Shown here: piece after piece, positions 12,280 to 56,397 of the stretch
Layout: each line of letters begins with the position of its first letter
How positions within the stretch are numbered: the first letter of the stretch is position 1
Assembly: GCA_949358305.1 (NCBI GenBank)
Contig: OX442314.1
Span: 54,943,369 to 55,003,368, forward strand
DNA length: 60,000 nt
Source: Strigamia acuminata
Lineage: Eukaryota; Arthropoda; Chilopoda; Geophilomorpha; Linotaeniidae
Direction of reading: 5' to 3'
Translations under genes and position numbers: made by a program
Notes under the pieces: model-generated
Told to the model about the DNA's origin: nothing
The model's database searches: none
What the model saw: only the letters and a program-made list of their open reading frames with translations

Positions 12280-13185
12280 TTAATGTTTTTTCAAGCCATG
12301 TTTTTTCAGTTGCACACTATGAACACAAGAATAAGCACACAAATGGCACTTGAATGGTTTTTCCCCTGTATGAGTTGCAATATGTTTTCTTAAATCTCCA
12401 CTTTGAACACAAGAATAAGCACACAAATGGCACTTGAATGGTTTTTCCCCCGTATGAGTTGCAATATGTCTTTTTAATGCCCCACTTTGAACACAAGAAT
12501 AAGTACACATATGGCACTTGAGTGGTTTTTCCCCCGTATGGGTTGCAATATGTTCTTTTAATGCCCCACCGTGAACACAAGAATAAGCACACAAATGGCA
12601 CTTAAATGGTTTTTCCCCCGTATGAGTTGCAATATGTTTTCTTAAATCTGAACTTTGAGTGCAGGAATAAGCGCACAAATGACACTTGAAGATTTTTTCA
12701 CCCGTATGAGTTAATAAATGTCTTTTTAGATTTCCACTTCGACCACAAGAATAAGCACACAAATGGCACTTGAATGGTTTTTTCCCCGTATGAGTTGCAA
12801 TATGTCTTTTTAATGTCCCACTTTCAGTGCAGGAATAAGCGCACAAATGACACTCGAATGGTTTTTCCCCCGAATGGATTAACAGATGCCTTTTTAAAGT
12901 CTCACTTCTAACACAAGAATAAGCGCACAAATGACATTTGAAGGTCCTTTCCCCCGTATGAGTTAATAAATGTCTTTTTAGATTTCCACTTTCCCTGCAG
13001 GAAAAAGCACAAAAATTACACGTGAAGGGCTTTTCACCGGTGTGTTTAAGCATGTGTCGTTTCAATTGTGAATAATATGAACACGAATAATCACACAGAT
13101 TGCAACACAAATCCGACTCCGCCGCGTCTATTATTGGTGATTGCGAAGATTCACCACGATTTAACAGTAGTTCAATGTCCGCCAT
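12280..13185 (-). CDS. C2H2 zinc-finger protein 1 (10 fingers)
   Basis: An intact intronless 301-aa ORF starts at an ATGGCGG that is also the start of the PABPN1 copy and of the two sister genes. After a short N-terminus (MADIELLLNRGESSQSP...) come ten C2H2 fingers, C-x2-C-x12-H-x3-H, joined by TGEKP-type linkers; the last ends H-x4-H (KKHGLKKH). The unit is 84 bp. The core aromatic is a Tyr two residues after the second zinc Cys (CAYSC), and fingers carry an additional Cys there. Such arrays normally bind DNA in the nucleus; residues at helix positions -1, 2, 3 and 6 differ between fingers, as expected for sequence reading. There is no KRAB, ZAD, SCAN or BTB domain. The target is unknown. 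Confidence 0.93.
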   Translation of the reverse strand: MADIELLLNRGESSQSPIIDAAESDLCCNLCDYSCSYYSQLKRHMLKHTGEKPFTCNFCAFSCRESGNLKRHLLTHTGERTFKCHLCAYSCVRSETLKRHLLIHSGEKPFECHLCAYSCTESGTLKRHIATHTGKKPFKCHLCAYSCGRSGNLKRHLLTHTGEKIFKCHLCAYSCTQSSDLRKHIATHTGEKPFKCHLCAYSCVHGGALKEHIATHTGEKPLKCHMCTYSCVQSGALKRHIATHTGEKPFKCHLCAYSCVQSGDLRKHIATHTGEKPFKCHLCAYSCVHSVQLKKHGLKKH

Positions 13186-13308
13186 TTGAAAGTATAACCG
13201 TGATGTGTGCTGGTTCGGGTTTGCAACGCCTCTATGGAGATTGAAGAGAGAAATTGGTCTTTTTATACCTCAACGCAAATACGTAGTGTATGCGTTTGTC
13301 GTCCAATG
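13186..13308 (-). promoter_or_regulatory. TATA/CCAAT core promoter of zinc-finger gene 1
   Basis: On the gene strand a CCAAT box in reverse (ccaat at 13303-13307 on the plus strand) lies about 40 bp upstream of TATAAAAAG (plus tttttata around 13260-13267). The leader to ATG then shares gaaag and GGTTCGGGTTT words with the genes at 43649, 49074 and 56274. The same arrangement is present at all four genes, so the promoter was copied along with the coding start. Confidence 0.8.
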
Positions 13309-13587
13309 AATGAATGAATTAATCATTCAAAAGTCGTATGGACCCCGCATTAGGCAAATCTGATAATTAGCAAAAAATAAAATTTATGGCAAGACGTAAT
13401 TCGGTTTGTTATAGAAAGTTTGAATAATCGACTTGTGTTTAATGAGAACTCGGACAGGACGTTATATGGGCGACGAGGATGCTGTTCAGTGCATGAACGG
13501 GTATTTCTTCGTGAGTGTTCTTTGTGTTGGACGTTTTGCTGTTGGATTTGGCGATTGTTTTCATAGTGCTAGGCGTGGCTGCTAAAA

Positions 13588-13960
13588 ATGGCGGTGCCCA
13601 AAGTCAAGGTGGAGTCATTGGCCAGTGCGAACTTTTCCGTGGCAGCAGTGCCAACAAATTTTGCGCAGACGACGGGAGTTGCACCGTTCGACATTGCACG
13701 GGGAGAGCCCGCTACCCAGGGTCCACGTTGGACGAAGTGGGTTGGAAGGTTGGAGGTTTTCTTGACTGCCGCCGGAATTGTGAACGATGTTAGGAAGAGG
13801 GCATTAAGCAGGCGAAGCGGTCTACGACATTTACACGACACGTTACCCGCGACTGGAACGAATTACGCGACTGCCAAAACGGAATTAACAGCGTATTTTG
13901 CCCCTAAGAAGAATGTGTGTGACATGCAACGCTCAATTGCAAAAAACTACAGAGTAGGCC
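13588..13960 (+). pseudogene. Gypsy gag remnant fused to a Harbinger HTH fragment
   Basis: The translated piece contains WTKWVGRLEVFLTAAGI, then DTLPATGTNYATAKTEL and YFAPKKNV, the capsid-region signature of a common Gypsy gag family. After KKNV it changes to SIAKNYRVGQSTVT, which fits the helix-turn-helix of PIF/Harbinger transposases. The frame stays open to 14052 but runs into unrelated sequence. It is divergent from the zinc-finger gene, about 400 bp from its ATG. An upstream gcgacgaggatgc motif resembles Gypsy leader sequence. Confidence 0.75.
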
Positions 13961-14140
13961 AAAGCACTGTCACCAATTGTCACCAAATTGGCGACTCTCT
14001 AAATTGGCGACGGCCAAATCGGAGATTGCATGGCGATCGCCGAACCCATTAAATGGGAACCGCGTTCCCAAATTGGCCAGCTACCAAATTGGCGATGAAT
14101 GAAATTGTCGATGGGTCAAATTGGCGATTGCGAAAAAACG
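13960..14140 (+). repeat. degenerate aaattggcga repeat
   Basis: The word AAATTGGCGA or variants occurs about eight times, spaced irregularly, with a possible gcgatcgc palindrome at 14033-14040. It looks like the subrepeat-rich end of a DNA transposon, but I find no terminal inverted repeat partner. Confidence 0.5.
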
Positions 14141-14511
14141 CGAAAAAACGTGAGAAAACACGAGAATTTCACACGAGAATCTCGTGTCTTCTCTCGTTCT
14201 CTAATAACATTCTAAAAATGTTTTTAATCACATGTTTTTTATTTCCAGAAAACCAGAGCTTGTAGAACAAAGTTTTTATCATTTTTATCATTTATTTTGT
14301 AAATTAGTAATAAACTAATAAATAACTTCACTTTAGCCTAGCGCATTTACTCGGTGATTCACTGCAGCACATTAACGCCATTTTTTTTTCGGTTTTTCAT
14401 GTTTTTCAACTGGTTTTCACCCGTTTTAATCATTCCTTTAAATGATTTCTTAAGGTTTTTTTCATTTTTAAACCGTTTTTTTTTATGGTTTTTAATGTTC
14501 TTTCCCCAGTT
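14141..14511. other. AT-rich intergenic DNA
   Basis: T-rich sequence with runs of tttttt and no gene. It separates the gag remnant from the transposase relics. Confidence 0.5.
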
Positions 14512-15050: not shown

Positions 15051-15057
15051 ACATTAC

Positions 15058-15669
15058 AGCCATTACAGCCAAAAATTTAGCACTACTTTGAAAGAATACT
15101 ATTATAAAAAGAGTGATACGTACGAATTGTTGTGTAAAGCAACAATTTTAGACCCGAGGTTTCGATTGACATTCTTTGATGGCGAAGAAAGCAATATTGT
15201 TGATGCAATCGTGGATGAGGCCGTCATTCATTTGCAAAACAAAACGGAAGTTACGGAACGATTAACAACCCCGATATCGAGTGTGGATGGACCCAGCGGA
15301 ATAAAACGACCGAAATTAAGTGGTTTGGCCGCTATTTTGAAAACCCGAAACCAGCAAGCTGTTAGAGAACTGTCACATCGTGATATTATTTTAAAAGAAT
15401 TTGACTGCTTTAAAAAATCAACACCAACGCCAATTGAACAGGATCCCTTATTATGGTGGAAAATACACATTACGGATTTTCCTAACTTGGCTTACTTGGC
15501 CCGAAAGTATTTATGCCTTCAAGCCACCAGCGTCCCCAGTGAGAGGGTATTCAGTTGTGGGGGGAGAGTTATCACAGATGCTTGCGCACGTTTAACTCCT
15601 GAGCACGCTGAGGAGCAGATTTTTCTAGAAATGAACAAACACTTACTGCTTCCAAAGCAGAAGCAGTAA
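15058..15669 (+). pseudogene. hAT transposase C-terminal fragment (ZBED-like)
   Basis: An open frame from about 15088 carries ILDPRFR near the start and, at the end, DPLLWWKIH..FPNLAYLARKYLCLQATSVPSERVFS followed by RLTPEHAEEQIFLEMNK. This is the hAT dimerisation domain, with the family's SVPSERVFS motif intact. The N-terminal BED finger and the first catalytic region are absent; the upstream sequence belongs to a MULE relic, so this is a truncated copy. Its last codons form one arm of a perfect hairpin. Confidence 0.85.
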
Positions 15670-15682
15670 GTGTTTGTTCATT
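15630..15682. repeat. perfect 23-bp stem-loop at the end of the hAT fragment
   Basis: Bases 15630-15652 and 15660-15682 are exact reverse complements with a 7-base loop (CAAAGCA). The left arm encodes the end of the transposase, the right arm covers its stop and 3' flank. Confidence 0.9.
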
Positions 15683-23621: not shown

Positions 23622-24218
23622 TGTCAAATGCTGACACTAGTTCTCAATTTTAAGTAGTGAGTTCCAAAGTCCTAGTTGCAAATGATGATTTGAAGTTGAA
23701 AATTTGGTATTTCTTGTAGATTCCAAGATGGCAGTCAGAGTAGAAAATAAAGCACACGCACACAGTTTTGAGTCTAAAGCTATACTGAAGGTTTTATTTC
23801 ACTGGGTGGGGGATATATACAACAGATGCTCCCATTGGTTCAATGGATTCAAACCCAACAGGTGGGTGTAATTAAAGATGGAGACACATTCCAAACTTGG
23901 AGGTGTCTCCGAGGTTATCTCTGGGGTCACAGACCTCAATTTGAGTGAAAATAAAACCAAATACAATAAAACAAGTAAAAACGTTATTTGGAATATTTAA
24001 AATAATGGAAATACAAAAAACACTTTTAGCAACTACAAAATTAATGTAAGAATAAAGAGTTTCAACAAAATAGATTTAAGCAATTTAGTAAATAAAAAAC
24101 ACACAAATTGTACACTTAAGGTATTTAAAAATCACAATATAAAATGCACAAAATAGTAAAACACAATAATTCAAAAAATAGACAAACATGTAATTTGTAA
24201 AACCACACGGTTTTCACA
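23622..24218 (-). repeat. 3' LTR of the BEL element
   Basis: 597 bp. The pol stop codon TGA at 24214-24216 is formed by the first bases of this LTR on the element strand. It reads the same as 29505-30101. Confidence 0.95.
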
Positions 24219-26970
24219 CTGCGGCGGCCAAACTGGAACTTCCCACTTCCAAATGGACAAGGCGTTGTATTGGGCGCCTCAACTTTCCTCCGTCTGAAGT
24301 TATCACTTCGCAGGAACGAATTTTTCCATCTCTGCCCAGACGCACCTCTGTAATTCGAGCCATTTTCCATTTGAGGCGAGGTTTGCAAAGTTCTTCAACT
24401 AGCACCACATCATTCACTTTAAGTTCAGTCAAATTCGGTTTAGATGAATAGTTTTTAAGTTCTTGCAAATATTCGCGGCTCCAGCGATTCCAAAATGACA
24501 TCAAAGTTCGCTGTCGGTAACGCCACTGTTTAACAAACTCGATTTGTGACGGTTCAACTGGATTCAAATACACAGGGTCTGGTAAATTGGTGATACGCAG
24601 TCCAGTAAAAAAATGTGACGGAGTAAGAGGCTCGGGCTCGTCAGGTGAATCGTACACGTAGGTGATGGGTCTGTTATTAACAACAGCCTCAACTTGCACA
24701 AGCACGGTTCCGAGTTGGAAAAAATTGAGAGAAGCGGTGCCAACAATTTTTTTCAGGCAGGACTTTACAGTCTTTACCATCCTCTCCCAAAATCCTCCCC
24801 ACCACGGAGCGTGCTCTACAATGAATTTCCAATTTATACCTTTTTCGGCCAAATAAGTTTTGAAACTGCTGTCCTTTGTAGATTTGAGTAATGCAGCTAG
24901 CTCGCGATTGGCTCGATGAAAAGTAGCACCGTTGTCACTGTATATGGTCTTGGGCAGGCCTCGTCGACCGATGAATCTCTCGAATGCGTCCAAAAAATCC
25001 GGTGTGGTTAAAGATGGCACCAATTCGAGGTGTACTGCTCGTATCGTTGCGCAAGTGAATAAGGCAATGTACGCTTTCGTCTTGCGTCCTCGAATGTAAA
25101 TGGGACCAGCAAAATCTACCCCCGTCACTTTAAATGGTTCACATCGCGTTATTCGGTCAAATGGGAGAGGTCCTGGAACCTCTGTCATCAATCGCCCCTG
25201 AATGCGTTTGCAGGTCACGCACTTGGACAGCAGTGTCTTCAAGGTCCTCCTTGCGGACGACGTCCAGTATGTCTCGCGAAAATGGGCTAACGTTGCAGTC
25301 AATCCGCAATGAAGGACCTGAGAATGACAAAAATTCAAAATTAGTTTTGCAAATTCACTTTTTGCACCCAAAACAATTGGTTGCACGGCGGTGTCCGTGT
25401 CTTTGGAATTGTTTAGTCGAGTTCGCAGGCGCATGAGTCCCTTTTCGTCCAAAAATGGGTTAAGCATCTTTAATTTGGATCCTGAAGTCAACTGTTTTGA
25501 TTCGTCTAGTTGTCTCATTTCTGCGCCATATTCCTCCCATTGGTGGATGATGATTAAATTGACTCGAGCGTCCTGGAGTTCCTGTGCGTCCAGGGGGCCT
25601 TGTCGACGATCGTTCGATTGTTTTTGTTGTCTCGCATTGAAAATGAATCGCTTACACCATCCCATCACCCGACAAATTCGCCTAAATGAGCTGAAATTTT
25701 TAAAATTGATAAAATTATTTCTTGTCTGGATCGATTCAATGTGTACGGTGTCTTCTAGTTCATCTGGAAAATCGTCGACATCAAAATTGCAGTTTGGCCA
25801 TTGTTGATGATCGTCTTTAGGCCATTGTTGATGATCGTCTTTAAGCCATTGTGGCCCCCTCCACCAAAGATCGTCTGTTACGAGAGTGTCGACATCCATC
25901 CCGCGTGTCAATCGGTCAGCTGGGTTTTCCAAGCCGGGCACATGTCTCCATGCATCAATCTTGGAGTTTTCTCGAATTTCCATCACTCGATTGTTGATGA
26001 ATGTCGGCGGTCTCTTTGCGGTATTTGTTATCCAGTGCAAACAAATTTGTGAGTCGGTCCAAAAATATGTTTGTCTTGGCTGGATGACTTTTCGAATTTG
26101 TACGGCCATTCTGACTGCTACAAGTGCTCCCATCAACTCTAATTTGGGCAGAGTTAATTGTTTGACTGGTGCAACTCTGCTTTTTGAAAAAATGAACGAA
26201 ATGGTGGTTGTTTCATCCTCTGATTTCAGGTAGGCGACTGCTCCATAAGCCTTTGGACTGGCGTCGCAAAACATGTGAAGTTCGCTGTTTTCTTGCGTTG
26301 CTCCTTTCAAATGTCTTGCTAGTTGAATGCTGTTTAGCTTCGGAATCTGGTTGGCCCACTGCGTCCACTCATCATACGATTTGTCATCCAATTTCTGATC
26401 CCATGGTAGCTTTTTTAACCAGAGTGATTGAAAAAATATTCGTGCGCTAATTGTAAACGGTGTCACGAACCCGAGTGGATCGAAAATTTTTGCTGTGATC
26501 CTAATTACTTCTCGTTTTGTTAATTCCCGTTTTTGTTCTTCAGAGTTTTCCACATCCAATCCCAACATGTCCGTTTTTGGATTCCATTTCAGTCCTAAAA
26601 CCTTTGACTTGTCGTCCTCGATCAGCTGGGCGTCGGACGGAATTTCTCGTCGAAATTGATTTCTCAGATTCTCTGAATTGGTTTGCCATTTGATTAAATT
26701 CATTCCCGCGGCTTTGAGGATGGTTCTGGATTGGATAAATATGCGTAATGCTTCTTCTTCATTGTCTAATGATGTAATAAAGTCATCCATGTAAAGGTAT
26801 TCGTTTAGAAGCTCGTATGCTTCGGGAAATTGCTGTTTGAATTTCTTCAGATGATGTTTAATTGTTGCGCTCAACAAGAATGGGCTGGGCGCCGCTCCAA
26901 ACAGAACTCTGGTTTGACGCAAAATTCGAATTACTGCTTTACTAATTCCGTCCCAGTCTGCCTCAACCAC
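24214..26970 (-). CDS. pol: BEL Pol, 3' part (rest of RT, RNase H, integrase)
   Basis: This frame takes over from the upstream one inside RT. It begins before RVLFGAAPSPFLLSATI and has YLYMDDFITS as the RT active site, HMFCDASPKAYGAV and WTDSQICLHWI of RNase H, an HHCC region (CHSQVLHCGL..CVTCKRIQG) and integrase catalytic residues in GVDFAGP (about 618), SDNGATF (about 678) and GFWERMVK (about 729). A DUF5641-type C-terminus (FWNRWSREYLQEL) follows. A short tandem repeat KDDHQQWP occurs near 25800-25850. All motifs appear intact downstream of the frame break. The frame ends with a stop overlapping the LTR. Confidence 0.93.
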   Translation of the reverse strand: MVEADWDGISKAVIRILRQTRVLFGAAPSPFLLSATIKHHLKKFKQQFPEAYELLNEYLYMDDFITSLDNEEEALRIFIQSRTILKAAGMNLIKWQTNSENLRNQFRREIPSDAQLIEDDKSKVLGLKWNPKTDMLGLDVENSEEQKRELTKREVIRITAKIFDPLGFVTPFTISARIFFQSLWLKKLPWDQKLDDKSYDEWTQWANQIPKLNSIQLARHLKGATQENSELHMFCDASPKAYGAVAYLKSEDETTTISFIFSKSRVAPVKQLTLPKLELMGALVAVRMAVQIRKVIQPRQTYFWTDSQICLHWITNTAKRPPTFINNRVMEIRENSKIDAWRHVPGLENPADRLTRGMDVDTLVTDDLWWRGPQWLKDDHQQWPKDDHQQWPNCNFDVDDFPDELEDTVHIESIQTRNNFINFKNFSSFRRICRVMGWCKRFIFNARQQKQSNDRRQGPLDAQELQDARVNLIIIHQWEEYGAEMRQLDESKQLTSGSKLKMLNPFLDEKGLMRLRTRLNNSKDTDTAVQPIVLGAKSEFAKLILNFCHSQVLHCGLTATLAHFRETYWTSSARRTLKTLLSKCVTCKRIQGRLMTEVPGPLPFDRITRCEPFKVTGVDFAGPIYIRGRKTKAYIALFTCATIRAVHLELVPSLTTPDFLDAFERFIGRRGLPKTIYSDNGATFHRANRELAALLKSTKDSSFKTYLAEKGINWKFIVEHAPWWGGFWERMVKTVKSCLKKIVGTASLNFFQLGTVLVQVEAVVNNRPITYVYDSPDEPEPLTPSHFFTGLRITNLPDPVYLNPVEPSQIEFVKQWRYRQRTLMSFWNRWSREYLQELKNYSSKPNLTELKVNDVVLVEELCKPRLKWKMARITEVRLGRDGKIRSCEVITSDGGKLRRPIQRLVHLEVGSSSLAAAV

Positions 26971-35839: not shown

Positions 35840-38800
35840 TCACAAGCGATCCCTAACTCTCCTCCAGCTCTTAGCCCGTGGTAACGTATAATCAAAACTT
35901 AAGGCTGAAGCCGGGATGTGTGGTGTCGGGAATAATTGGTTTCCGTTGGAAATAGAACGTGGGTTCACTTGCTCACTCATGGAGAACCAAACATGTTTAT
36001 TTTTTGGTTTGCATGTTGTTTCGGTCTGTGTACGCCTCCAATGAGTGAGGAATACAACGAGAGTTCCACTGTCGTTGTGGGTGGCCGATGTCTCTATGGC
36101 AATGGTCAGTACAAATGGGCTAGCCGTATGAGTTGGAATTGACTTTGTTGTTCTCGGTACTCTGGGTTGTTGATCCTGTGAGTTCTGCGATGAGTCTTGT
36201 CGCTCCCGATTGTTAGTTGATGGTGAAGTTGTCGAGGGCTCAACTGCAAGTGGTAAAATGACACACCAGGGGCTGGTTGGCTGTTGGCTAGCTGATGTAA
36301 TTGGCCAAGACAGTCCATCTCTGTCGTGTGTCAAACCATAGTGGATGTTGCTTGTCGAGGGGACAACTGGGCTCCACATGTCGCTCATTGATGGAGGTAT
36401 GCTTATATCCTCTCGATTAACGGTGGTCCAAACAGCCATAGCTTGTTTTACATGGCAATCTTGGGCCAAGTCTGTATTGGACAAAGTGGCGACGGCGACT
36501 TTGGCGTTTTCCATTTCACGAAGAAAAGTCTTGAGTTTGTTACAATTGGGATTCTGCCGGCTGTTTGTATTATTGTCACGTTGCTGGTTAATGTTGATAG
36601 GGTTTATCTTCTCACAGACTTGTGGGCGAATATTTCTCGCCTGAACGATGACTGGGTCAATTGGGGTTAATCGACTGCCCCACTTCTCGTTTGATAACTC
36701 CACCAGATGTCGTTCATCATCTATTGGGGCTTCCGTCATTGAATTTTCGATTGAGGGGGCTGTACCGGCATTGCTTTGTTTCTGGTGCTTGGCGCGGCCG
36801 GGCCCCACTGTGGTTGGTTCTTCATTTGCAATCTCTGTCGGCAGCGTTATTAAAGTCTTGATGCAGCGGTGAATGTGTTCTGATTTTGACTGAATTTCTA
36901 ACCATGTCTTTGGGGAAACTTCTGGCAGATATTGTGTCAGCCGATCCACATCCACAGGCTCTGATTTGTAGCTGTCTATTATTTGCAGCAGTTTGTAAGT
37001 ATTGCCGCCCTGTCCAGCTCTGCTCGTGCCGGAACTGCCTCTTTGAACTGCCTGACTGGCAGCCGTATCCTTGGCTGCACTGAGCAGTTTGTGAATTTCT
37101 TTCCAAACATGGTCATTAGCTTCACAGTCCGTGAATGGAATATCCGTTTCCAAATTGTGAATTCTCTCAAGTATGTCGAAATTTTGTGCAATCAGGTTTT
37201 GATTCCACTTGCACCCATATCCATATGTCTTGCTCGGGATATTCTTTAATTTGCCATCAAAATCTTTGAATATTTGAAAGACAAATTGCGTGTCATTGTC
37301 TGATAATACTTTTTTCTTGAATTTGAATTTCAGTGCTGCATCGAATAAATTCTCTGTGATCTCCACAGCAAAGCGTTTAGCGAGGGCACAGATCTTAATC
37401 CGCCCAGTGGCAACATATTGGGGATATTGTCCAATGAGATAAGAAGTGTTTTTTTTCATCCTGTCTGGGTGGCTGGTCAGCGGGGGCTCGTGTAACAAAC
37501 AGAGGATTTGTTTCTTCAGAGTTGACTGCACTGCTATCATTCTAGTGTTGTCTGGCTCACTCCAATTGTCTTTGAAGTTTGGACACAGTTTGTCTTGCTC
37601 ACAATCTGTTTTTAATGCTCCTTTCTCCATTTTTGGCTTTTCTTGATTTTCTTCCAAAATTATTGTTGCTTTCTTTATCTCTTCCCCTCCCAAGATGTCT
37701 TCGTCCAACTGATTCGCTCTCTTGAGCTCTGAGAAGGAGCGGTTAGCAACAAACTCTTTATTGTGGCACCTCATAGTGAGATCGGGCGGTCGGCGCTTCA
37801 TTGCAAATGGTTCACAATTGGCCGCTTGACTCTGCGCCGGTCGGTTCCTTTTTTCTCTTGTCTTTTTTCGTTTCTCTTTTTGGTTTTTCTTTCTGATGGG
37901 TTTAGTAACTTGAGGAGTTTGTAACGTCCCAACTGGAGATGGTTGAGCCCTTTTTCCTAGCTGTTTTTGTTTCACCGTTGCTCTGGTTTTTATCAGGCTG
38001 CGTGCAGAGGCCCTAATTTGACAGTCAACTTTGGGATTATGCAACGTGCTTGATTGATTAGGCTCCTGAACGCAGTCTTTTAGTTTTTTGCTTTCATTTA
38101 GACAGGGGGTGCCTTTATATTTGTTCATTGGAGGTAACAATCGATTCCATTGTCTGTCTTCTCGCTCGGGATGATGTTCGTCGCATTTCTGTTTGGCACA
38201 GTGAGGATGATGCGTTTTATCATTTTCAGAAGTGCTTTCTTCTGCTTCCTCCCTCTCCGAAATCGCTTGCTCCGGTTGGGCTGGAGTCACGTCGGGCTGT
38301 TTTTGTTGGTCAGTTTCCTGATGAGGACTTGATTGGTCATCTTGCAAACGCTCTGGTTTGTCATTCAAATTTTTTGGCAACAAATCTTTAATTTTTTCCA
38401 TTGGTTCTAATATTGCTTGCTCTGCCTTATTTGTTTGTCCATGCTCGTCACAAATATTCACGATTGGCAGTGGAGTCAGTGTAGAAACCCGTACATTGTT
38501 TAGCGTTTTATTTTTGTTTTGGTCGCAGTTTATTCTTCCCGAAAAAGAAAAGACTATTTTTGTTAAATTCTTTTCCTGTGCAGTCCTGTCGTCTGACGCT
38601 TTCGTTAACAGCTTGGTCAATTGGCCGACCTCGCTCGTTACTTCGGTGTAACTTGGACGTGAAAGGAGCGTTGCGTTTCTGTCTCGAGCTTTTTTCTTTG
38701 GCTTGTGTTTATAATTTTCAAATTCAGACTTGAGGCAACTTAGTAGTGTTTTAGTTCTACTCGATGTTTCCTTTCTATTGTCCTTTGTCGTTTGTTTGTC

Positions 38801-40774
38801 AGCGTGCGGCTTGGGATTGGTTACGAAATCCTTTCTCTTTTGCGAGCGAGGATGACAGCTCCGGAAAGATTGGTTGGAGGTGCTCGTGGGGTCGGGTCGG
38901 CGTTGGTCGCCGTCCCTGCCCGTTTGATTTCCTCTCGTGGACAACCGACTTGGGTGGTCGTCGTCCGACGAGTCGGAGGGGTCGGAGGGGTCGCCATGGG
39001 GGCGATTCTCCGCTCCTCTAGGTGGAACTTCATTGCCATCTTGTGGCTTTTTCTGGCTTCCGGATGGCGGCGGCTCCCTTCCGTCGCTGCTCCCACAAAA
39101 AGAATGCCATTTAGTTTCTTCATTCTCTGGGCCTTCGCGGTCCTTATTTGTATTCTTCCAATCGAGTGAAGCATTAGTGGTCGCTCCAGTTTCGGATCTC
39201 TTCGAGGGGTGACGGTCTCTTGATTTCGGTTCCAGTCGGTCTTCCTCTTGGGATCTTCCTAATTTTGCCGCTTTTGTTGGCTTTGTTCTGCGCTCTCTTG
39301 TTTCGATGTCAGAGCCACAGGGGGGCTTTTGGTTCATTTTTTGGTCTTTCTCTCTTTTATTTCTCTTCGAAATGTCTTGTTCGTATTTTCTTTGGAATTT
39401 CTCTGTTTCTTTTTTCCAATTCTCGGCTTCCCATCTTTTCTGTTCATCAATTATAGCTTGTTTTTTAGCTTCATATTCTTCTCTCCATCTTTCTCGCTCC
39501 CATTCTTCCTGCTCTCTCAGGAATTGTTCTTTTTCCTTTCTAGCCTTTTCAGCTTTCATTCTTTCATGGTATTGTTCTTCCCACTTTTGGTGCTGAATTA
39601 TGGCTTCTTCTCGTAATTTTTGCAGCTTTTCCATTTTATGTTGCGCCAGGAGTTCTCGGAATTGGTCCTTGTAGTCTTGGGCTTTTTTATGCTTTCCTTC
39701 TACGGTGACGTTCCATTCTTGCTTTATCTCGGCTTCCTGGTCTCCTCTCATTTTTTGTATTATTCTTTCCGTTCGCTCGGCTGTCCTTTTGTCGCGTTGT
39801 TGTTTTTCTTCTTCTTCCCTCCAAAGTTGTCTTCTTTCTGCGCTCAATTTTCGTTGCCGATTTATTGTTTCCAATCTCGCTTCTTCTCGAGCCTTTTCGC
39901 GGGCTTTGTAAAGGGCTTTTTGGGGGTCGGGTACAAAACCGCCTATTTCACTTGGCGTTTCTTGTTGCATGGGCGTCTCCGCTGCTGGTGTTGCGACTGG
40001 CGTTGCGGCTTGGGCCATACAGATAGCATCAGTGAGTAGAGTAATCGATTCCCAGACCGACGTCCCTACTGGAATGTCTATCGCTGCTTTCAGTCGGGTC
40101 GCTTGTTGTGTTAGCCGTATCAGGTGGGCTATCTCGGGAGAGACTGAAGCAGGTCGCACCGTAACCTGGGGGGTTATCGGGGTCCCGCTCCTGCCTCGCC
40201 GCGGAGTTTGTTCTAGCCGTATTAAATGGGCCACTTCAGGAGAAACCGAGGCAGGCCTCGCCGTAACTTGGGAAGTTATCGGGGTCCCGCCCTGGTCTCG
40301 CACAAGAGTTTGATCCACTGGTGGCGATGGGTTGGTGCTGATGGTATTTGTTTGCCTCGGAGTTTTGTGTGTCTCCTCGGCCACTAATATCGATACTCGT
40401 TCGGTTGATTGTTCGTGAATTTCTTCGCAATTTTCTGGAACTTCTGTATCGGTATCTTCGAAGGTTTGCGTATTTAAGGGAACCCGCTCTCGCTCTGGCC
40501 CAGGGGGGGCTGTGAGCGAGGCAGCTTGCTCCTCTTTCTGCGTATTCAAGGGAATCCGCTCTCGCTCTGCCCCATGGGGGGCTGTGAGCGAGGCAGCTTG
40601 CTCCTCTTTCTGCGCCTTCACTTTTTGTTTGTTCGCTCGGGCTTTCGCCTTAGCGGATTGTTCCGGAACTGGACCGTCCGACCTTTGGTGATAGTCGGAG
40701 GTTCTGTTTCCCTTTTTGAGCATAGGTTGCTCGGTTTCAGACGCGGATTGTTCATCTTTGTCTGACATTTTCAT
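35840..40774 (-). CDS. giant Gag-like ORF of the non-autonomous LTR element
   Basis: The frame is open from the primer site; the first plausible start is ATG 40774 (MKMSDKDEQ), giving about 1644 residues. Near the N-terminus two peptides are tandemly duplicated (QKEEQAASLTAP..ERER and PASVSPEVAHLIRL). A long charged coiled coil of E, K, R, Q follows (nt about 39310-39900). Then come hydrophilic low-complexity regions, a more globular segment (YLIGQYPQYVATGRIKICAL and FQIFKDFDGKLKNIPSKTYG, nt about 37170-37450) and a Ser/Thr/Pro-rich C-terminus ending RRVRDRL. There is no zinc knuckle, protease DTG or RT YxDD. It probably has a structural Gag-like role. It is uninterrupted, so selection or very recent origin kept it open. 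Confidence 0.8.
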   Translation of the reverse strand: MKMSDKDEQSASETEQPMLKKGNRTSDYHQRSDGPVPEQSAKAKARANKQKVKAQKEEQAASLTAPHGAERERIPLNTQKEEQAASLTAPPGPERERVPLNTQTFEDTDTEVPENCEEIHEQSTERVSILVAEETHKTPRQTNTISTNPSPPVDQTLVRDQGGTPITSQVTARPASVSPEVAHLIRLEQTPRRGRSGTPITPQVTVRPASVSPEIAHLIRLTQQATRLKAAIDIPVGTSVWESITLLTDAICMAQAATPVATPAAETPMQQETPSEIGGFVPDPQKALYKAREKAREEARLETINRQRKLSAERRQLWREEEEKQQRDKRTAERTERIIQKMRGDQEAEIKQEWNVTVEGKHKKAQDYKDQFRELLAQHKMEKLQKLREEAIIQHQKWEEQYHERMKAEKARKEKEQFLREQEEWERERWREEYEAKKQAIIDEQKRWEAENWKKETEKFQRKYEQDISKRNKREKDQKMNQKPPCGSDIETRERRTKPTKAAKLGRSQEEDRLEPKSRDRHPSKRSETGATTNASLDWKNTNKDREGPENEETKWHSFCGSSDGREPPPSGSQKKPQDGNEVPPRGAENRPHGDPSDPSDSSDDDHPSRLSTRGNQTGRDGDQRRPDPTSTSNQSFRSCHPRSQKRKDFVTNPKPHADKQTTKDNRKETSSRTKTLLSCLKSEFENYKHKPKKKARDRNATLLSRPSYTEVTSEVGQLTKLLTKASDDRTAQEKNLTKIVFSFSGRINCDQNKNKTLNNVRVSTLTPLPIVNICDEHGQTNKAEQAILEPMEKIKDLLPKNLNDKPERLQDDQSSPHQETDQQKQPDVTPAQPEQAISEREEAEESTSENDKTHHPHCAKQKCDEHHPEREDRQWNRLLPPMNKYKGTPCLNESKKLKDCVQEPNQSSTLHNPKVDCQIRASARSLIKTRATVKQKQLGKRAQPSPVGTLQTPQVTKPIRKKNQKEKRKKTREKRNRPAQSQAANCEPFAMKRRPPDLTMRCHNKEFVANRSFSELKRANQLDEDILGGEEIKKATIILEENQEKPKMEKGALKTDCEQDKLCPNFKDNWSEPDNTRMIAVQSTLKKQILCLLHEPPLTSHPDRMKKNTSYLIGQYPQYVATGRIKICALAKRFAVEITENLFDAALKFKFKKKVLSDNDTQFVFQIFKDFDGKLKNIPSKTYGYGCKWNQNLIAQNFDILERIHNLETDIPFTDCEANDHVWKEIHKLLSAAKDTAASQAVQRGSSGTSRAGQGGNTYKLLQIIDSYKSEPVDVDRLTQYLPEVSPKTWLEIQSKSEHIHRCIKTLITLPTEIANEEPTTVGPGRAKHQKQSNAGTAPSIENSMTEAPIDDERHLVELSNEKWGSRLTPIDPVIVQARNIRPQVCEKINPININQQRDNNTNSRQNPNCNKLKTFLREMENAKVAVATLSNTDLAQDCHVKQAMAVWTTVNREDISIPPSMSDMWSPVVPSTSNIHYGLTHDRDGLSWPITSASQQPTSPWCVILPLAVEPSTTSPSTNNRERQDSSQNSQDQQPRVPRTTKSIPTHTASPFVLTIAIETSATHNDSGTLVVFLTHWRRTQTETTCKPKNKHVWFSMSEQVNPRSISNGNQLFPTPHIPASALSFDYTLPRAKSWRRVRDRL

Positions 40775-40823
40775 TTGGTTATTTTTAAAAGAGATCACAA
40801 GTTCAGTTTGAGATTTATTTCTA

Positions 40824-40842
40824 AATCCCGGACAGGCCCCCA
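40824..40842 (-). other. primer-binding site, tRNA-Pro-like
   Basis: Two bases inside the 5' LTR, the element strand reads TGGGGGCCTGTCCGGGAT. The usual tRNA-Pro site is TGGGGGCTCGTCCGGGAT, so two adjacent bases differ. The tRNA may differ slightly in this species. Confidence 0.65.
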
Positions 40843-40844
40843 CG

Positions 40845-43025: not shown

Positions 43026-43649
43026 TTAATACGGCGACGACCAATGTCGAGTCCTAGGTCTTCGAGTGGGCCCATAACCTCCTCTTGCATTCGGACGAAA
43101 TTGAGTGCAACGGCCTCTAAACGGGGCTCGATATTGTCCTCTCGGTGGCCGGTTCGTCGCCGTATAAATGCCCGGTCGGTTGGTGCGTTTCGCGCACACC
43201 TTAATCGCTCTGCCCCTGAACAGAGATTAGTCCATGGCCAAAGCGACCGCCACCGAATCCGAATCGGCGAACTCCATGTACGCAAATCCCTTGGGATGAC
43301 CCGTGAACTTGTCGGCCATTATGGTGACTCTATTGACCGCTCCGCATCCGACGAAATGTCGTTCCAATTCGTCCGCCGTCGTCCCGTAGTCGACGTTTCC
43401 GACGTAGATGGATCGCGAATCCGAATCCGCAGCGTCTCTTACCGGTGATTGCGAACCTGAAGATTCGCCACGATTTAGTATTCCAATGTCCACTTGCAGT
43501 TGCTTCAATTTGGCCACTTCCTCTTCAATTTCTTTCGCCGGGCCTCTGAGTTCTTCCGGCGGCGAATCGGCGTCGTTGCCGTCCTCAACAACTTTTTCTT
43601 CGTAGTCCAATGAATCGTTCATTTCTACGTCTCCGTTCATTTCCGCCAT
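43026..43649 (-). pseudogene. PABPN1: PABPN1 (nuclear poly(A)-binding protein) retrocopy with one nonsense codon
   Basis: From ATG 43649 the frame encodes an acidic N-terminus, a coiled-coil helix (AKEIEEEVAKLKQLQVDIG) and an RRM with RSIYVGNVDYG (RNP2-type) and HPKGFAYMEF (RNP1), both intact. At 43227-43229 a TAA stands where the family has Glu of ALDESLFRGR. After it the same frame stays open for 66 codons with SLFRGRAIKV, an Arg/Gly/Pro-rich tail and the family's end WSSPY before TAA at 43026. The full frame is 208 codons, like fly Pabp2 in size, with no introns, so it is probably an RNA-derived copy. The parent binds nascent poly(A) and sets tail length in the nucleus. Truncation removes the last RRM strand and the Arg-rich tail. 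The single lesion implies recent inactivation or a polymorphism. Confidence 0.9.
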
Positions 43650-43769
43650 TTGAAAGTAAATGTGGTGCGTGTTGGTTCGGGTTTACAACGACTCTAAGAG
43701 ACTAAAGAACAAAAAAAGTCTTTTTATACCACAACGCAATACGTCGTTTATGCGTTTAGTCATCCAATT
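43650..43769 (-). promoter_or_regulatory. TATA/CCAAT promoter of the PABPN1 copy
   Basis: TATAAAAAG (plus tttttata 43721-43728) lies about 75 bp upstream of ATG and a reversed CCAAT box (plus 43764-43768) about 40 bp further. The leader shares gccatttgaaagta and GGTTCGGGTTT with the three zinc-finger genes. Homology stops just beyond the CCAAT box. Confidence 0.8.
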
Positions 43770-43781
43770 ATGACAGTTATC

Positions 43782-44222
43782 AAACCGTTATAATTCCAAT
43801 ATTGGCACCAAATGGCGCTGACAGACCGAAAGTGCGCGAGATTTGATTTAAACACTAACGTGTACATAATATTTCAGTGCAAAGAAGAAAATATAATTTA
43901 TCAGCCCGATCAAATCCGTCGATATGACTCTGAGGCGGACGGAGGCGTCAAAACCTCCCGAGATGTTTGTGGATCATCGTCGACTGTCCCCGCAAAATTA
44001 ATAACCAACCATCGATGCGCCCACCTGGAAGGAATTTCAATTTTTTAGCTTTTAGAGTTCTAAATGTGGAAATAGCGTAAAGCTTAGTATTCAACGTGTT
44101 CTCGCGGTCAGCTACGATCATCCAACGTTCCACTTCCGGTTACAATAATCCGACTTTCTACTTCCGGTTGAAATTTCCAATTATTTTGTTAATGCACTGC
44201 AATCGATCGTTATTTTGACGTT
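43782..44222. repeat. segmental duplication, partner 54893-55345
   Basis: Both contain caccaaatggcgctgacagac, atcatcgtcgactgtccccgc and two cacttccggtt words, with about 5 percent differences. Here the segment lies upstream of the PABPN1 promoter; at the partner it joins the 3' flank of zinc-finger gene 3. Confidence 0.85.
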
Positions 44223-48084: not shown

Positions 48085-49074
48085 TTAATGTTTTTTCAAG
48101 CCATGTTTTTTCAGTTGGACACTGTGAACACAAGAATAAGCGCACAAATGGCACTTGAATGGTTTTTCCCCTGTGTGAGTTGCAATGTGGCTTTTAAGTT
48201 GCCCACTTGTAATACACGAATAAGCACACAAATGACACTTGAATTGTTTTTCTCCAGTATGAATTGCAACATGTTTTCTTAAATCCCCCCTTTGAGCACA
48301 AGAATAAGCACACAAATGGCACTTGAATGGTTTTTCCCCCGTATGAGTTACAATATGTCTTTTTAATGCCCCACTTTGAACACAAGAATAAGCGCACAAA
48401 TGGCACTTGAATGGTTTTTCCCCCGTATAAGTTACAATATGTCTTTTTAATGCCCCACTTTGAACACAAGAATAAGCACACAAATGGCACTTGAATGGTT
48501 TTTCCCCCGTATGAGTTACAATATGTCTTTTTAATGCCCCACTTTGAACACAAGAATAAGCGCACAAATGGCACTTGAATGGTTTTTCCCCTGTGTGAGT
48601 TGCAATGTGGCTTTTAAGTTGCCCACTTGTAACACAGGAATGAGCACACAAATGGCACTTGAATAGTTTTTCGCCCGTATGAGTTGCAATATGCCTTCTT
48701 AAATTTCCACTTGTAACACAAGAATAAGCGCACAAATGGCACTTGAATAGTTTTTCCCCCGTGTGGGTTGCTATGTGTGTTTTTAAATGCTCACTTCGAG
48801 AGCAGGAATAAGCACACAAATGACACTTGAATGATTTTTCCCCCGTATGAGTTAATAAATGAGTTTTTAAAGCCCCACTATGAACACAAGAATATTCACA
48901 CAAATGACACTTGAAGGGCTTTTCACCGGTGTGTTTAAGCATGTGTCGTTTCAATTGCGAATAATATGAGCACGAATAATCACACAGATTGCAACACAAA
49001 GCCGACTCCGCCGCGTCAATCACCGATGATTGCGAAGATTCACCACGATTTAACAGCAGTTCAATGTCTGCCAT
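48085..49074 (-). CDS. C2H2 zinc-finger protein 2 (11 fingers, one damaged)
   Basis: An intact 329-aa ORF with the same N-terminus as its sisters and eleven C2H2 fingers. Fingers 6, 7 and 8 (CAYSCVQSGALKRHIVTHTG) are practically identical, showing recent tandem expansion of 84-bp units. In finger 7 the last zinc His is Tyr (HIVTYTG), so it probably cannot fold normally. The first finger (CNLCDYSCSYYSQLKRHM) and the last (CVHSVQLKKHGLKKH) are the same in all three genes, while the middle fingers differ in number and contacts. It is expected to be a nuclear DNA-binding protein. No effector domain is visible. Confidence 0.93.
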   Translation of the reverse strand: MADIELLLNRGESSQSSVIDAAESALCCNLCDYSCSYYSQLKRHMLKHTGEKPFKCHLCEYSCVHSGALKTHLLTHTGEKSFKCHLCAYSCSRSEHLKTHIATHTGEKLFKCHLCAYSCVTSGNLRRHIATHTGEKLFKCHLCAHSCVTSGQLKSHIATHTGEKPFKCHLCAYSCVQSGALKRHIVTHTGEKPFKCHLCAYSCVQSGALKRHIVTYTGEKPFKCHLCAYSCVQSGALKRHIVTHTGEKPFKCHLCAYSCAQRGDLRKHVAIHTGEKQFKCHLCAYSCITSGQLKSHIATHTGEKPFKCHLCAYSCVHSVQLKKHGLKKH

Positions 49075-49197
49075 TTCAAAGTATAAATGTGACGTGTGCT
49101 GGTTCGGGTTTGCAACGCCTCAATGGAGATTGAAGAGGGAAATTCGTCTTTTTATACCTCAACGCAAATACGTCGTGTATACGTTCGTCGTCCAATG
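49075..49197 (-). promoter_or_regulatory. TATA/CCAAT promoter of zinc-finger gene 2
   Basis: The TATA box (plus tttttata 49149-49156) and reversed CCAAT box (plus 49192-49196) have the same spacing as in the other two finger genes. The leader contains GGTTCGGGTTTGCAACGCC. Confidence 0.8.
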
Positions 49198-53603: not shown

Positions 53604-53604
53604 A

Positions 53605-54273
53605 CAGTCAAAGCTGCGTAGCCCGGACATAGCACCGACCGGACAGCTGTGTGGACCGGACAAGTTTGCCGGGACCCGGACCCAACCAATAAGGAGCAAT
53701 GGAAAATTTGCTCTTTGGTCCGGACAGCTCCCCCTTCCGGATTCCGGACAAAGCGATGCATCCCATATAAGGAAAAATCGCTGTGAAGTCCGGACAAAAC
53801 CCGATTTTCTAATGAAACAAATTACAAAAACAATTAAAAACACTAAAATTTAAATTAAAAATTAATTTAGTGCAGTTTTACAAGGGTTAGAAAAGGAAAT
53901 TTGCATTAAAGGTACTGTTACGACATGTGCACGTCGTAATGTACACGTCTTCACGAACGTAAACATTACGTATTTTTAGCGATACTTTGCATTTGCACTA
54001 CCCTTTAGTGCAAATTTCTGTTTTAAACTCTTATGAACCTGACAATAAACTGATTTTTGATTTTTAATTTAATTTTTATTGTTTCTTTCTTTAGAAAATT
54101 ACATTATTTAGTATTTTTTTAACGTAGCAGAAATTGATTTTCTTTAACTCTCTTGTCCGGACATGTGGCATTTGTCCGGACGAGAGCGCGTACGCGCCCT
54201 ACAAAACGGACATTCCCTAGACCGGACGAGTTTCTGGGACCCGTCCTATGTCCGGGCTACGCAGCTTTGACTG
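53605..54273. mobile_element. Tc1/mariner-type MITE
   Basis: A 669-bp element with 28-bp perfect terminal inverted repeats starting CAGTCAAAGCTGCGTAGCCC, flanked by TA on both sides (53603-53604 and 54274-54275). The word TCCGGAC recurs many times inside, in both orientations. No transposase. The empty site is seen in the duplicate at 34975. Confidence 0.92.
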
Positions 54274-54289
54274 TAAATTGAACAAAGAA

Positions 54290-54600
54290 AATAATAAATT
54301 TGTGTCCATACAACTCCTTGATTAATCACCTACCAATGTAAAAAGCTTGAAATTAAATCATATTGAATAAATACCCAATGACGACGATAAACCAGAAAAC
54401 GAAGACTTAGAAGAATGCGTGCCAACTTGCGGAAAGAATATCCTCTACGACAATGGCGGCGACCAAAGTCTTGTAAATTGAACTAAATCAAAATTGTGTC
54501 CACACAAATCCTTGATTGTGCACCTATCAATATACAAAGCTTGAAATTAAATAAATTTGAATTAATACCTAAGTAAAAACATCCTCCTTGAATTTCAGCC
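54290..54600. repeat. diverged units of the tandem repeat at 41668
   Basis: Units starting tTGTGTCCATACAACTCCTTG (54302) and ttgtgtccacacaaatcc (54495) match the array at 41668-42210. Confidence 0.75.
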
Positions 54601-54892
54601 AGGTGAATCAAACTGGGCGATATCAACTCTGCACCAATTTAGAAAAGGTTGCGCAATCAAACCCGAAAATATTTCAAATAAAACCACCAACCAGAACTTG
54701 GATAAAAGACCATCTAGAATAAAAATACTCGCAATTTAACTGAAGAAAAATAGAAGAAATTAATGAGAAAACCAATCGCGAATGCGATGTAAACCAACGT
54801 ACCGCTTGGCTCCATTGTGATAATTGTGCGACGGGATTCACATTTCGAGGAACACGACTATTTTATACATATAGAAACAATCCCAATTCAAA
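54601..54892. other. intergenic, nothing recognised
   Basis: AT-rich sequence between the tandem repeat and the duplicated segment. No gene seen. Confidence 0.4.
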
Positions 54893-55345
54893 CCGTTATA
54901 ATTCCAATATCGGCACCAAATGGCGCTGACAGACCGAAAGTGCGCGAGATTTGATTTAAACACTAATGTGTACATAATATTTCAGTGCAAAGAAGAAAAT
55001 AAACTTTATTAGTCCGATCAAATCCGTCGATATGACTCTGAGGCGAACGGAGCCATCAAAACCTCCCGCGATGTTTGTGGATCATCGTCGACTGTCCCCG
55101 CAAAATTAATAACCAACTCTCGATGCGCCCACCTGGAAGGAATTTCGATTTTTTGGCTTTTAGATTTCGACATTTTAGAGTTCTAAATTTGGAAATATCG
55201 TAAAGCTTAGTATTCAACGTGTTCTCGCGGTCGGCTACGAACATCCGACGTTCCACTTCCGGTTACGATAATCCGACGTTCTACTTCCGGTTGAAATTTT
55301 CAATTATTTTGTTAATGCACTGCAATCGATCGTTGTTTTGACGTA
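54893..55345. repeat. segmental duplication, partner 43782-44222
   Basis: See the partner. Here it abuts the 3' flank of zinc-finger gene 3 at gacgtacagaactgaag. Confidence 0.85.
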
Positions 55346-55536
55346 CAGAACTGAAGCGGACGATTAATACTAATCGACATCCTCGAAACAAACCTGAATT
55401 GCAATAAATTTTGGATTACGATTAATAGAACCAAATTTGTAATAACAGCAAATGAATGGTTTCCGATTTAGCAGCAACAGTTTTGAATTTAAGAGTTGTG
55501 AACATGAAAAACAAAATTTTTATTTGTATGCTTAGT

Positions 55537-56274
55537 TTAATGTTTTTTCAAGCCATGTTTTTTCAGTTGCACACTGTGAACACAAGAATAAGCGCACAGA
55601 TGGCACTTGAATGGTTTTTTCCCCGTATGAGTTGCAATGTGTCTTTTAAGATTCCCACTTGTAATACAGGAATAAGAACACAAATGGCACTTGAATGGTT
55701 TTTCCCCTGTGTGAGTTGCAATGTGGCTTTTAATTTGCCCACTTGTAATACAGGAATAAGCGCACAAATGGCACTTGAATGCTTTTTCCCCCGTATGAGT
55801 TGCAATGTGTCTTTTTTGATTACCACTTGTAACACAGGAATAAGAACACAAATGGCACTTGAATGGTTTTTCCCCTGTGTGAGTTGAAATGTGTGCTTTA
55901 ATTTGCCCACTTGTAATACAGGAATAAGCACACAAATGGCACTTGAATGCTTTTTCCCCCGTATGAGTTGCAATATGTTTTCTTAAATCCCCACTATCAG
56001 TGCAGGAATAAGCGCACAAATGACACTTGAATGGTTTCTCTCCCGTATGAGTTAATAAATGTCTTTTTAGATTTCCACTTTCCCTGCAGGAAAAAGCACA
56101 AAAATTACACGTGAAGGGCTTTTCACCGGTGTGTTTAAGCATGTGTCTTTTCAATTGCGAATAATATGAACAGGAATAATCACACAGATTGCAACACAAA
56201 TCGGACTCCCCCGCGTCAATCACCGGTGATTGCGAAGATTCACCACGATTTAACAGCAGTTCAATGTCCGCCAT
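55537..56274 (-). CDS. C2H2 zinc-finger protein 3 (8 fingers)
   Basis: An intact 245-aa ORF, with the same N-terminus and the same first and last fingers as its sisters. Fingers 4-5 and 6-7 form a duplicated pair (CAYSCITSGQIK then CSYSCVTSGN or CITSGN), so the array grew by 168-bp steps here. Finger 5 has Gln where Leu is usual in the helix (SGNQKRH). It shares finger 2 (CNFCAFSCRESGNLKRH) with gene 1 but not with gene 2. Presumably a nuclear DNA-binding protein with a different target. All zinc ligands are intact. Confidence 0.93.
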   Translation of the reverse strand: MADIELLLNRGESSQSPVIDAGESDLCCNLCDYSCSYYSQLKRHMLKHTGEKPFTCNFCAFSCRESGNLKRHLLTHTGEKPFKCHLCAYSCTDSGDLRKHIATHTGEKAFKCHLCAYSCITSGQIKAHISTHTGEKPFKCHLCSYSCVTSGNQKRHIATHTGEKAFKCHLCAYSCITSGQIKSHIATHTGEKPFKCHLCSYSCITSGNLKRHIATHTGKKPFKCHLCAYSCVHSVQLKKHGLKKH

Positions 56275-56397
56275 TCGAAAGTATTAATGTGATGTGTGCT
56301 GGTTCGGGTTTGCAAAGTCTCAATGGAGATTGAAGAGAGAAATTCGTCTTTTTATACCTCAACGCAAATACGTCGTCTATACGTTCGTCGTCCAATG
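56275..56397 (-). promoter_or_regulatory. TATA/CCAAT promoter of zinc-finger gene 3
   Basis: The TATA box (plus tttttata 56349-56356) and reversed CCAAT box (plus 56392-56396) match gene 2 nearly base for base. Confidence 0.8.

What the first reader, a model, noticed from the sequence alone, without database searches (positions are those of the whole stretch)
12280..56397. Zinc-finger family built on a captured PABPN1 promoter and N-terminus
The genes starting at 13185, 49074 and 56274 and the PABPN1 copy starting at 43649 share a reversed CCAAT box, TATAAAAAG, the leader word GGTTCGGGTTT, the start ATGGCGG and a coding stretch. PABPN1 reads DIGILNRGESSGSQSP..DAADSDS; the finger genes read DIELLLNRGESSQSP..DAAESDL. 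In the finger genes about 130 bases between the start codon and this stretch are missing, and after GA.TCGGATT the RRM is replaced by C2H2 fingers. Similarity continues upstream to the CCAAT box and then stops. So a new DNA-binding family seems to have arisen by deletion and fusion of a PABPN1 copy with a finger array, keeping its promoter. I know of no described PABPN1-C2H2 chimeric family.
Basis: seen in the sequence. Interest (0 to 1): 0.9.

Follow-up and report, generated by a model that had tools for sequence, protein, structure and literature searches.

The report
PABPN1-retrocopy/zinc-finger chimeric gene family
In a centipede, a spare copy of an RNA-tail-binding gene became joined to a zinc-finger gene, and the hybrid, still carrying the spare copy's promoter, multiplied into some twenty-five loci; relatives of both parent genes are still present in the same genome.

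Summary
The three finger genes and the PABPN1-like copy share 139 nt of promoter, leader and start at 78-81% identity (best E 3e-27), then 60-77 nt of coding. The window lies on chromosome 1 of the centipede Strigamia acuminata (scaffold length matches to the base). I found 25 chimera loci, 22 of them in C1:54.60-55.16 Mb; 16 of 25 are open through at least four fingers, and ten keep nearly the whole PABPN1 N-terminus that the window trio lacks. Both parent families are present: intronless PABPN1 copies, related to a multi-exon PABPN1 on another chromosome, and finger genes starting MKxKxxD(L/F)CCNLCDYS. The junction is in frame at GGATT, a 5-nt stretch common to both. A tree separates 19 chimeras from 6 PABPN1 copies (99/99) and makes the window trio one clade (98/96), which lost 153 nt. 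Genome-wide, all 26 scored promoter matches lie on chimeras or PABPN1 copies. DNA-contact residues vary most (pN/pS 1.4-1.5 against 0.3-0.4 elsewhere; positive selection suggested, not proven). The PABPN1 part evolves almost neutrally. Transcription and function are untested.

The parts
12280..13185 (-). Chimeric gene 1 (301 aa): 24 PABPN1-derived codons, then C2H2 fingers; intronless open frame
13186..13307 (-). Gene 1 promoter and leader shared with PABPN1 copies (ATTGG 13307-13303, TATAAAAAG 13267-13259, AAACCCGAACC 13222-13212)
13110..13114 (-). Gene 1 fusion junction: GGATT, present in both parent families (PABPN1 TCGGATTCG, finger donors AGGATTT)
43227..43649 (-). PABPN1-like intronless copy, in-frame TAA inside the RRM (140 aa; sibling copies with the same start run to 199-208 aa)
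43650..43768 (-). Promoter and leader of the PABPN1 copy (ATTGG 43768-43764, TATAAAAAG 43728-43720, AAACCCGAACC 43684-43674)
48085..49074 (-). Chimeric gene 2 (329 aa), same architecture; junction reads GGCTT at 49003-48999
49075..49196 (-). Gene 2 promoter and leader (ATTGG 49196-49192, TATAAAAAG 49156-49148)
55537..56274 (-). Chimeric gene 3 (245 aa), same architecture; junction reads CGATT at 56203-56199
56275..56396 (-). Gene 3 promoter and leader (ATTGG 56396-56392, TATAAAAAG 56356-56348)

Best explanation
Origin (read from sequence): in the Strigamia lineage PABPN1 gave rise to intronless copies (retroposition, inferred from the lost introns), which multiplied on chromosome 1. The 5' half of one such gene (promoter, leader, acidic and coiled-coil N-terminus) was joined in frame, at the 5-nt microhomology GGATT, to a C2H2 gene of a local family just before its first finger, replacing the RRM. 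The hybrid was amplified, probably by segmental duplication, into at least 25 loci, 22 of them within C1:54.60-55.16 Mb. One branch, the three window genes, later lost 153 nt including the coiled coil. Function (inferred): the genes are expressed from the TATA-box promoter of the PABPN1 copy and make nuclear DNA-binding proteins whose fingers diversify at base-contact residues. In full-length members the PABPN1-derived N-terminus may act as a protein-interaction arm; in the window trio the protein is little more than a finger array.
For: Shared promoter and N-terminus. Nine loci match PABPN1 from residue 1 to 76-78 at 58-69% identity in front of fingers; ten of 19 anchored chimeras keep 219-237 nt before the junction. 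Multi-exon PABPN1 on C3 and single-frame copies on C1. Of 40 scored matches to a query across the junction, 21 start at query positions 1-5 and are chimera loci, the other 19 all start at 7; four finger-only genes were read and all four start MK.K..D(L/F)CCNLCDYS with GGATT at the junction point. The last fingers and 3' flank of one donor match chimeras past the stop codon. Tree: 19 chimeras against 6 PABPN1 copies 99/99, window trio 98/96. 16 of 19 ATG-anchored genes, 16 of 25 loci in all, are open with at least 4 fingers. All 25 rows of the N-terminal set (19 chimeras, 6 PABPN1 copies) have a length divisible by three. Contacts -1, 3 and 6 have pN/pS 1.48 against 0.28 at positions other than -1, 2, 3 and 6.
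Against: No transcript, protein or binding data. The PABPN1-derived part evolves almost neutrally among 16 non-window chimeras (pooled pN/pS 0.89; 68 of 120 pairs below 1), and the window trio has lost most of it, so a function for that part is weakly supported. 9 of 25 loci are broken, truncated or lack the original start. Of 24 promoters compared, 4 lack an exact TATAAAA/TATAAAT, 3 lack AACCCGAACC, and 9 have no ATTGG at -119 to -126, among them the PABPN1 copy at 53.476 Mb. In 18 independent finger pairs contact pN/pS is 1.44 with bootstrap range 0.86-3.66, and two positions outside the contacts vary as much. Finger constraint may be inherited from the donor family. Two tree rows, 54.735 and 54.773, share SDFCC with two of the four donors and stand apart in the chimera part of the tree, so a second fusion or an exchange is not excluded. 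Relationships within the chimeras are largely unresolved (11 of 22 inner branches of the tree open).
Confidence: 0.85

Rival explanations
1. The family is a by-product of segmental duplication and is mostly decaying; the open frames survive because the fusion is young and the fingers were conserved in the donor family.
For: N-terminal pN/pS 0.89 among 16 non-window chimeras (three of them broken further on); 9 of 25 loci broken, truncated or lacking the original start; variable duplication extents.
Against: 16 of 25 loci open; N-terminal lengths divisible by three in 25 of 25 rows (loci without a recognised start or junction were not in that set); finger framework pN/pS 0.28-0.37.
Confidence: 0.2
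2. The promoter came from the finger side or from a repeat and was acquired by the PABPN1 copies afterwards, so that little was captured from PABPN1 except a coding stretch.
For: The intron-bearing PABPN1 lacks the promoter in its 400 nt upstream, and three deeper PABPN1-like copies (C1:52.3, 52.75, 34.3 Mb) show only matches of 14-23 nt to it. The finger donors' own promoters were not seen: only 376-533 nt before the junction point was held, and a splice acceptor there suggests an earlier exon.
Against: All 26 scored genome matches to the promoter part sit on a chimera (20) or a PABPN1 copy (6), none on a finger-only gene (40 of 64 candidates scored); one PABPN1 copy shares hundreds of bases upstream with several chimeras.
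Confidence: 0.06
3. Gene conversion after an independent origin made the finger genes and PABPN1 copies look alike at the 5' end.
For: Physically interspersed copies on one chromosome favour exchange.
Against: The tree splits PABPN1 copies from chimeras 99/99 over promoter plus N-terminus; homology of finger-only genes begins abruptly at the junction.
Confidence: 0.03

Closest known systems
Lineage-specific poly-C2H2 families with an N-terminal effector (KRAB-, SCAN-, BTB-, ZAD-ZNF; names partly recalled)
   Same: Clustered, recently duplicated finger arrays with TGEKPF linkers, a common N-terminal module, and variation highest at helix positions 3, -1 and 6. Emerson and Thomas 2009 (PMC2604467, passages read) report positive selection at -1, 3 and 6 in vertebrate families.
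   Different: The N-terminal module is a PABPN1 fragment, with no KRAB, SCAN, BTB or ZAD hit. The same paper reports no positive selection in the fly and mosquito expansions.
Chimeric retrogenes (jingwei type; recalled)
   Same: A retroposed gene contributes part of a new fused gene.
   Different: Here the copy supplies promoter and N-terminus, the join is a microhomology junction in DNA, and the hybrid became a multigene family.
PABPN1 / PABP2
   Same: Acidic N-terminus, coiled-coil segment and linker up to the RRM in full-length chimeras.
   Different: RRM and C-terminal tail replaced by fingers; the window trio also lacks the coiled coil.
BCL2L2-PABPN1 read-through transcript (PMC8955228, start of abstract in the search listing)
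   Same: A PABPN1 fusion product.
   Different: Made by splicing of adjacent genes, not a duplicated genomic chimera with zinc fingers.

Membership tests
Poly-C2H2 zinc-finger proteins | Tandem C-x2-C-x12-H-x3-H fingers with TGEKP-type linkers | tested here: met
   Pfam zf-C2H2 and zf-H2C2_2 hits in all three window genes; 106 fingers in 16 open genes
Poly-C2H2 zinc-finger proteins | Sequence-specific DNA binding | not testable with these tools
   No binding data
PABPN1 / PABP2 | RNA recognition motif | tested here: not met
   No RRM hit in the three window chimeras or in L045; present in the window PABPN1 copy and in L025 and L026
PABPN1 / PABP2 | Acidic and coiled-coil N-terminus | tested here: met
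   Nine loci match residues 1 to 76-78 at 58-69% identity; not met in the window trio, which lost it
KRAB-, SCAN-, BTB- or ZAD-ZNF | The named N-terminal domain | tested here: not met
   No such Pfam hit in 3 window genes at E 0.001 or in L045 at E 0.01; other chimeras not scanned
Chimeric retrogene | One parent intronless where its source gene has introns | tested here: met
   PABPN1 on C3 in seven exon blocks (the first weak, E 0.95), C1 copies in one frame
Chimeric retrogene | Transcribed fused product | not testable with these tools

The most novel reading that the evidence does not exclude
A young arthropod counterpart of KRAB-ZNF genes: DNA-targeting proteins under diversifying selection whose effector arm, taken from PABPN1, brings poly(A) polymerase or nuclear RNA-decay machinery to chosen chromosomal targets such as transposons, with one branch turned into effector-less competitors by deleting the arm.
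Probability: 0.1. Interest if true: 0.88.

Novelty: new variant of a known kind. Interest (0 to 1): 0.66.

Why it matters
The parents of a new DNA-binding family are often no longer recognisable. Here members of the 5' parent family, members of the 3' parent family, the junction, near full-length descendants and a later deletion branch all survive in one genome, so the birth of a transcription-factor-like family can be tested step by step. It would also be an arthropod finger expansion with variation focused on DNA-contact residues, whereas the fly and mosquito expansions in Emerson and Thomas 2009 (passages) showed no positive selection.

Tried and rejected
Rejected: chance similarity (E-values); a dispersed repeat as source of the promoter (all 26 scored promoter matches on chimeras or PABPN1 copies); the idea that the multi-exon PABPN1 donated its promoter (400 nt upstream compared); the idea that the 153-nt loss was part of the fusion.

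Led nowhere: a search with chimera residues 1-90 gave no protein at E 0.01. A 12-member profile gave 4335 finger proteins among 7946 scored; only the best 120 are listed, and no row with a name is from Strigamia maritima, though many rows carry no name. This suggests, but does not show, absence there. The S. maritima genome paper names no PABP or C2H2 in its main text (PMC4244043, term search). Paper searches: PABPN1, zinc finger, chimeric gene, retrogene (0 papers); PABPN1, fusion gene, zinc finger (14, none on such a family by title); C2H2 zinc finger, chimeric, lineage-specific, arthropod, N-terminal domain (1); centipede, C2H2, zinc finger, genome (15 papers, 8 listed, none on this by title); four of KRAB, retrogene, promoter capture, zinc finger, chimeric gene (4); Strigamia maritima with zinc finger or gene family expansion (661, 15 listed); Strigamia acuminata, zinc finger (0). 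None describes this family as far as titles show. The library is open-access PubMed Central only.

Limits: G000 searches score only the best candidates, so 25 loci is a lower bound. Rows left out of the promoter and N-terminus tree: L068 (junction pattern not matched), and L055, L061, L063, L069 and L071 (no recognised start). and one search also left out L070. Contact-residue statistics use the 16 open genes only. In the protein tree the foreign N-termini of two copies were trimmed. Whether the S. maritima PABPN1-like genes lack introns was not tested. Structure prediction was not used: its stated rule does not list loci from the genome search.
Full report
Observation. The window's three finger genes (starts 13185, 49074, 56274, minus strand) and the PABPN1-like copy (start 43649, minus strand) share 139 nt of promoter, leader and start at 80.6, 78.4 and 79.1% identity and, after a gap, 60-77 nt of coding at 74-78%. 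GGTTCGGGTTT is exact at four places, all of them these genes. TATAAAA begins at -82 or -79 and reversed CCAAT at -122 or -119. The window copy is a PABPN1 homologue by sequence (best solved relative: an RRM named polyadenylate-binding protein 2, 3ucg, E 5.7e-29), with a TAA inside the RRM where sibling copies have glutamate.

Where it is. The genome holds 237,517,015 bases; its contig C1 has 66,985,994 bases. The published Strigamia acuminata assembly has a longest scaffold of 66,985,994 bp, and its chromosome 1 is 66.99 Mb (PMC10556566, first of three parts of the text read). The window is C1:54,943,369-55,003,368.

Census. Searches with the PABPN1 copy and with the finger-gene 5' end, and reading of the loci, give 25 chimera loci: the three in the window, 19 more in C1:54.597-55.160 Mb, and one each at C1:42.012, 56.848 and 57.665 Mb. 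One of the 19 (54.905) kept the promoter and leader but lost the PABPN1 coding part. Of 19 loci with an anchored ATG, ten keep 219-237 nt of PABPN1-type coding before the junction, six keep 108-189 nt, and the window trio keeps 78. The full form reads MAEMNENVEMHDSFDDEESLVEDGND...EEETAKLKQQQVDIELLLNRGGSSGSQSPVIDAAESD, then LCCNLCDYSC and fingers. Of the same 19, 16 are open through at least four fingers (106 fingers in all); the other 9 of 25 loci are frameshifted, stopped, truncated or lack the original start. The census is a lower bound because the tool scores only its best candidates.

The 5' parent. A search with a millipede PABPN1 finds a multi-exon gene at C3:26,464,208-26,465,300 (blocks at 73-83% identity). 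Reading it gives seven exon blocks, the first of them weak (E 0.95), several with visible GT...AG borders. The chromosome 1 copies read run through these borders in one frame, which points to retroposition. In a protein tree the C3 gene pairs with the millipede protein (95/84), while the 10 S. acuminata copies used and four S. maritima proteins (P0001-P0004) form one clade, 100/100 (one long branch, order within the clade partly open). The copy lineage therefore appears older than the split of the two species; whether the S. maritima genes lack introns was not tested. P0001 has a similar linker before the RRM (SRGEPSDFQSPIEDVEQSDARSIYIGN).

The promoter. Its part of the query finds 26 places in the genome, 20 chimeras and 6 PABPN1 copies (40 of 64 candidates scored). 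It was not found in the 400 nt upstream of the C3 gene (only a 15-nt match at the start codon), nor, beyond matches of 21 nt, in the stretches held upstream of four finger donors (376-533 nt before the junction point, so the donors' own promoters may lie further out). Identity between PABPN1 copies and chimeras is 0.61-0.87 in 25-column blocks back to about -125 and 0.33-0.46 beyond. That limit holds for five of the six PABPN1 copies and is not a property of the fusion: the copy at C1:53.476 Mb matches 7 of 18 chimeras out to 431-464 nt upstream of its own start (183-442 nt in the chimeras' own coordinates), so a longer 5' region was carried over. The TATA box is the best-kept element (20 of 24); ATTGG at -119 to -126 is present in 15 of 24. 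Three deeper PABPN1-like copies do not clearly share the promoter, so when it was acquired is open.

The 3' parent and the junction. A query across the junction gives 40 scored matches: 21 begin at query positions 1-5, and all are chimera loci; 19 begin at position 7. Four finger genes without the PABPN1 part were read (L066, L067, L072, L073; the first, third and fourth are among the 19). They begin MKTK(R/H)KDLCCNLCDYS or MKIK(R/H)QDFCCNLCDYS, and L066 and L067 have a likely splice acceptor about 80 nt before the ATG (judged by eye). At the junction point all four read AGGATTT(G/C)TGTTGC, two of six PABPN1 copies read GAGTCGGATTCGCGATCC, and chimeras such as gene 1 read GAGTCGGATTTGTGTTGC. 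The five bases GGATT are common to both parents, and the join is in frame. The last fingers and 3' flank of one donor (L067) match chimeras past their stop codons, so the part 3' of the junction is of donor type. Three chimera loci (54.644, 54.735, 54.773) read SDFCC, like two of the donors; the first is not in the tree and the other two lie at the edge of the chimera side, so a second fusion or later exchange is not excluded.

Order of events. On promoter plus N-terminus, 19 chimeras and 6 PABPN1 copies fall on two sides of a 99/99 branch, and the window trio is a 98/96 clade on the chimera side (11 of 22 inner branches are open, and row 54.773 is long). One fusion, then amplification, then one 153-nt loss (51 codons, with GGA at both edges) in the ancestor of the window trio is the simplest history. 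Pairwise upstream matches among chimeras of 88 to 1630 nt (153 pairs) fit segmental duplication of varying extent. Other chimeras have their own shorter in-frame N-terminal losses.

Selection. Among the 16 non-window chimeras the PABPN1-derived part has pooled pN/pS 0.89, and among 6 PABPN1 copies 0.75: weak constraint. All 25 rows keep a length divisible by three, but loci without a recognised start or junction were not in that set. In the fingers, variation is highest at helix positions 3, -1 and 6, with the residue before -1 close behind (entropies 3.07, 2.80, 2.24 and 2.20 bits). Over all between-gene pairs pN/pS is 1.48 at -1, 3 and 6 and 0.28 at the positions other than -1, 2, 3 and 6; the residue before -1 and one residue between the histidines also have high pN, 0.57 and 0.52. 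In 18 independent reciprocal-best pairs, matched on non-helix codons only, pN/pS is 1.44 at the contacts against 0.37 elsewhere (Fisher p 0.0012; bootstrap 0.86-3.66 and 0.20-0.74). The contrast is firm; an excess over neutrality is suggested, not proven. Emerson and Thomas 2009 found positive selection at these positions in vertebrate families and none in fly and mosquito expansions (PMC2604467, passages).

Function. Inferred only. The finger arrays fit DNA binding. The coiled coil of PABPN1 interacts with poly(A) polymerase according to PMC12024694 (passages; its reference list holds Kerwitz et al. 2003 on this interaction). Full-length chimeras keep the corresponding segment; the window trio does not. 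I think a DNA-binding role most likely and a specific role for the PABPN1 arm uncertain, given its near-neutral evolution.

Known or new. The kind, a lineage-specific poly-C2H2 family with its own N-terminal module, is well known. A PABPN1-derived module and promoter was not described in what my paper searches listed. I file it as a new variant of a known kind.

Noticed in passing
L026 (C1:54,798,098-54,801,451) and L027 (C1:55,081,837-55,085,187): Two other PABPN1 copies have the first part of their N-terminus replaced by about 100 residues of other sequence (MVFKCKQPSD... in L026, MVFTCKQPSD... in L027), open in frame with the RRM: a second kind of PABPN1 chimera. Pfam names only the RRM in L026.
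   Followed up: partly
C1, mainly 42-57 Mb: The finger-donor family looks large: 304 first-look candidates for a 101-bp query around the first finger; only 40 were scored.
   Followed up: partly
L055 (C1:54,903,510-54,906,644): A locus with the promoter and leader but no PABPN1 coding part, joined almost directly to fingers, without the original start codon.
   Followed up: no
window 43780-44221 and 54888-55344: The region upstream of the PABPN1 copy is repeated beyond the 3' end of the third finger gene at about 92% identity over 457 columns, so the copy's far upstream part is a repeat.
   Followed up: no
window 95-5563, 24214-26970, 15088-15669: Open frames of a Ty3-like element, a Pao-like element and a hAT-type transposase fragment.
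   Followed up: no
window 35840-40843: A 1667-aa open frame, rich in charged residues, without any Pfam match at E 0.01.
   Followed up: no
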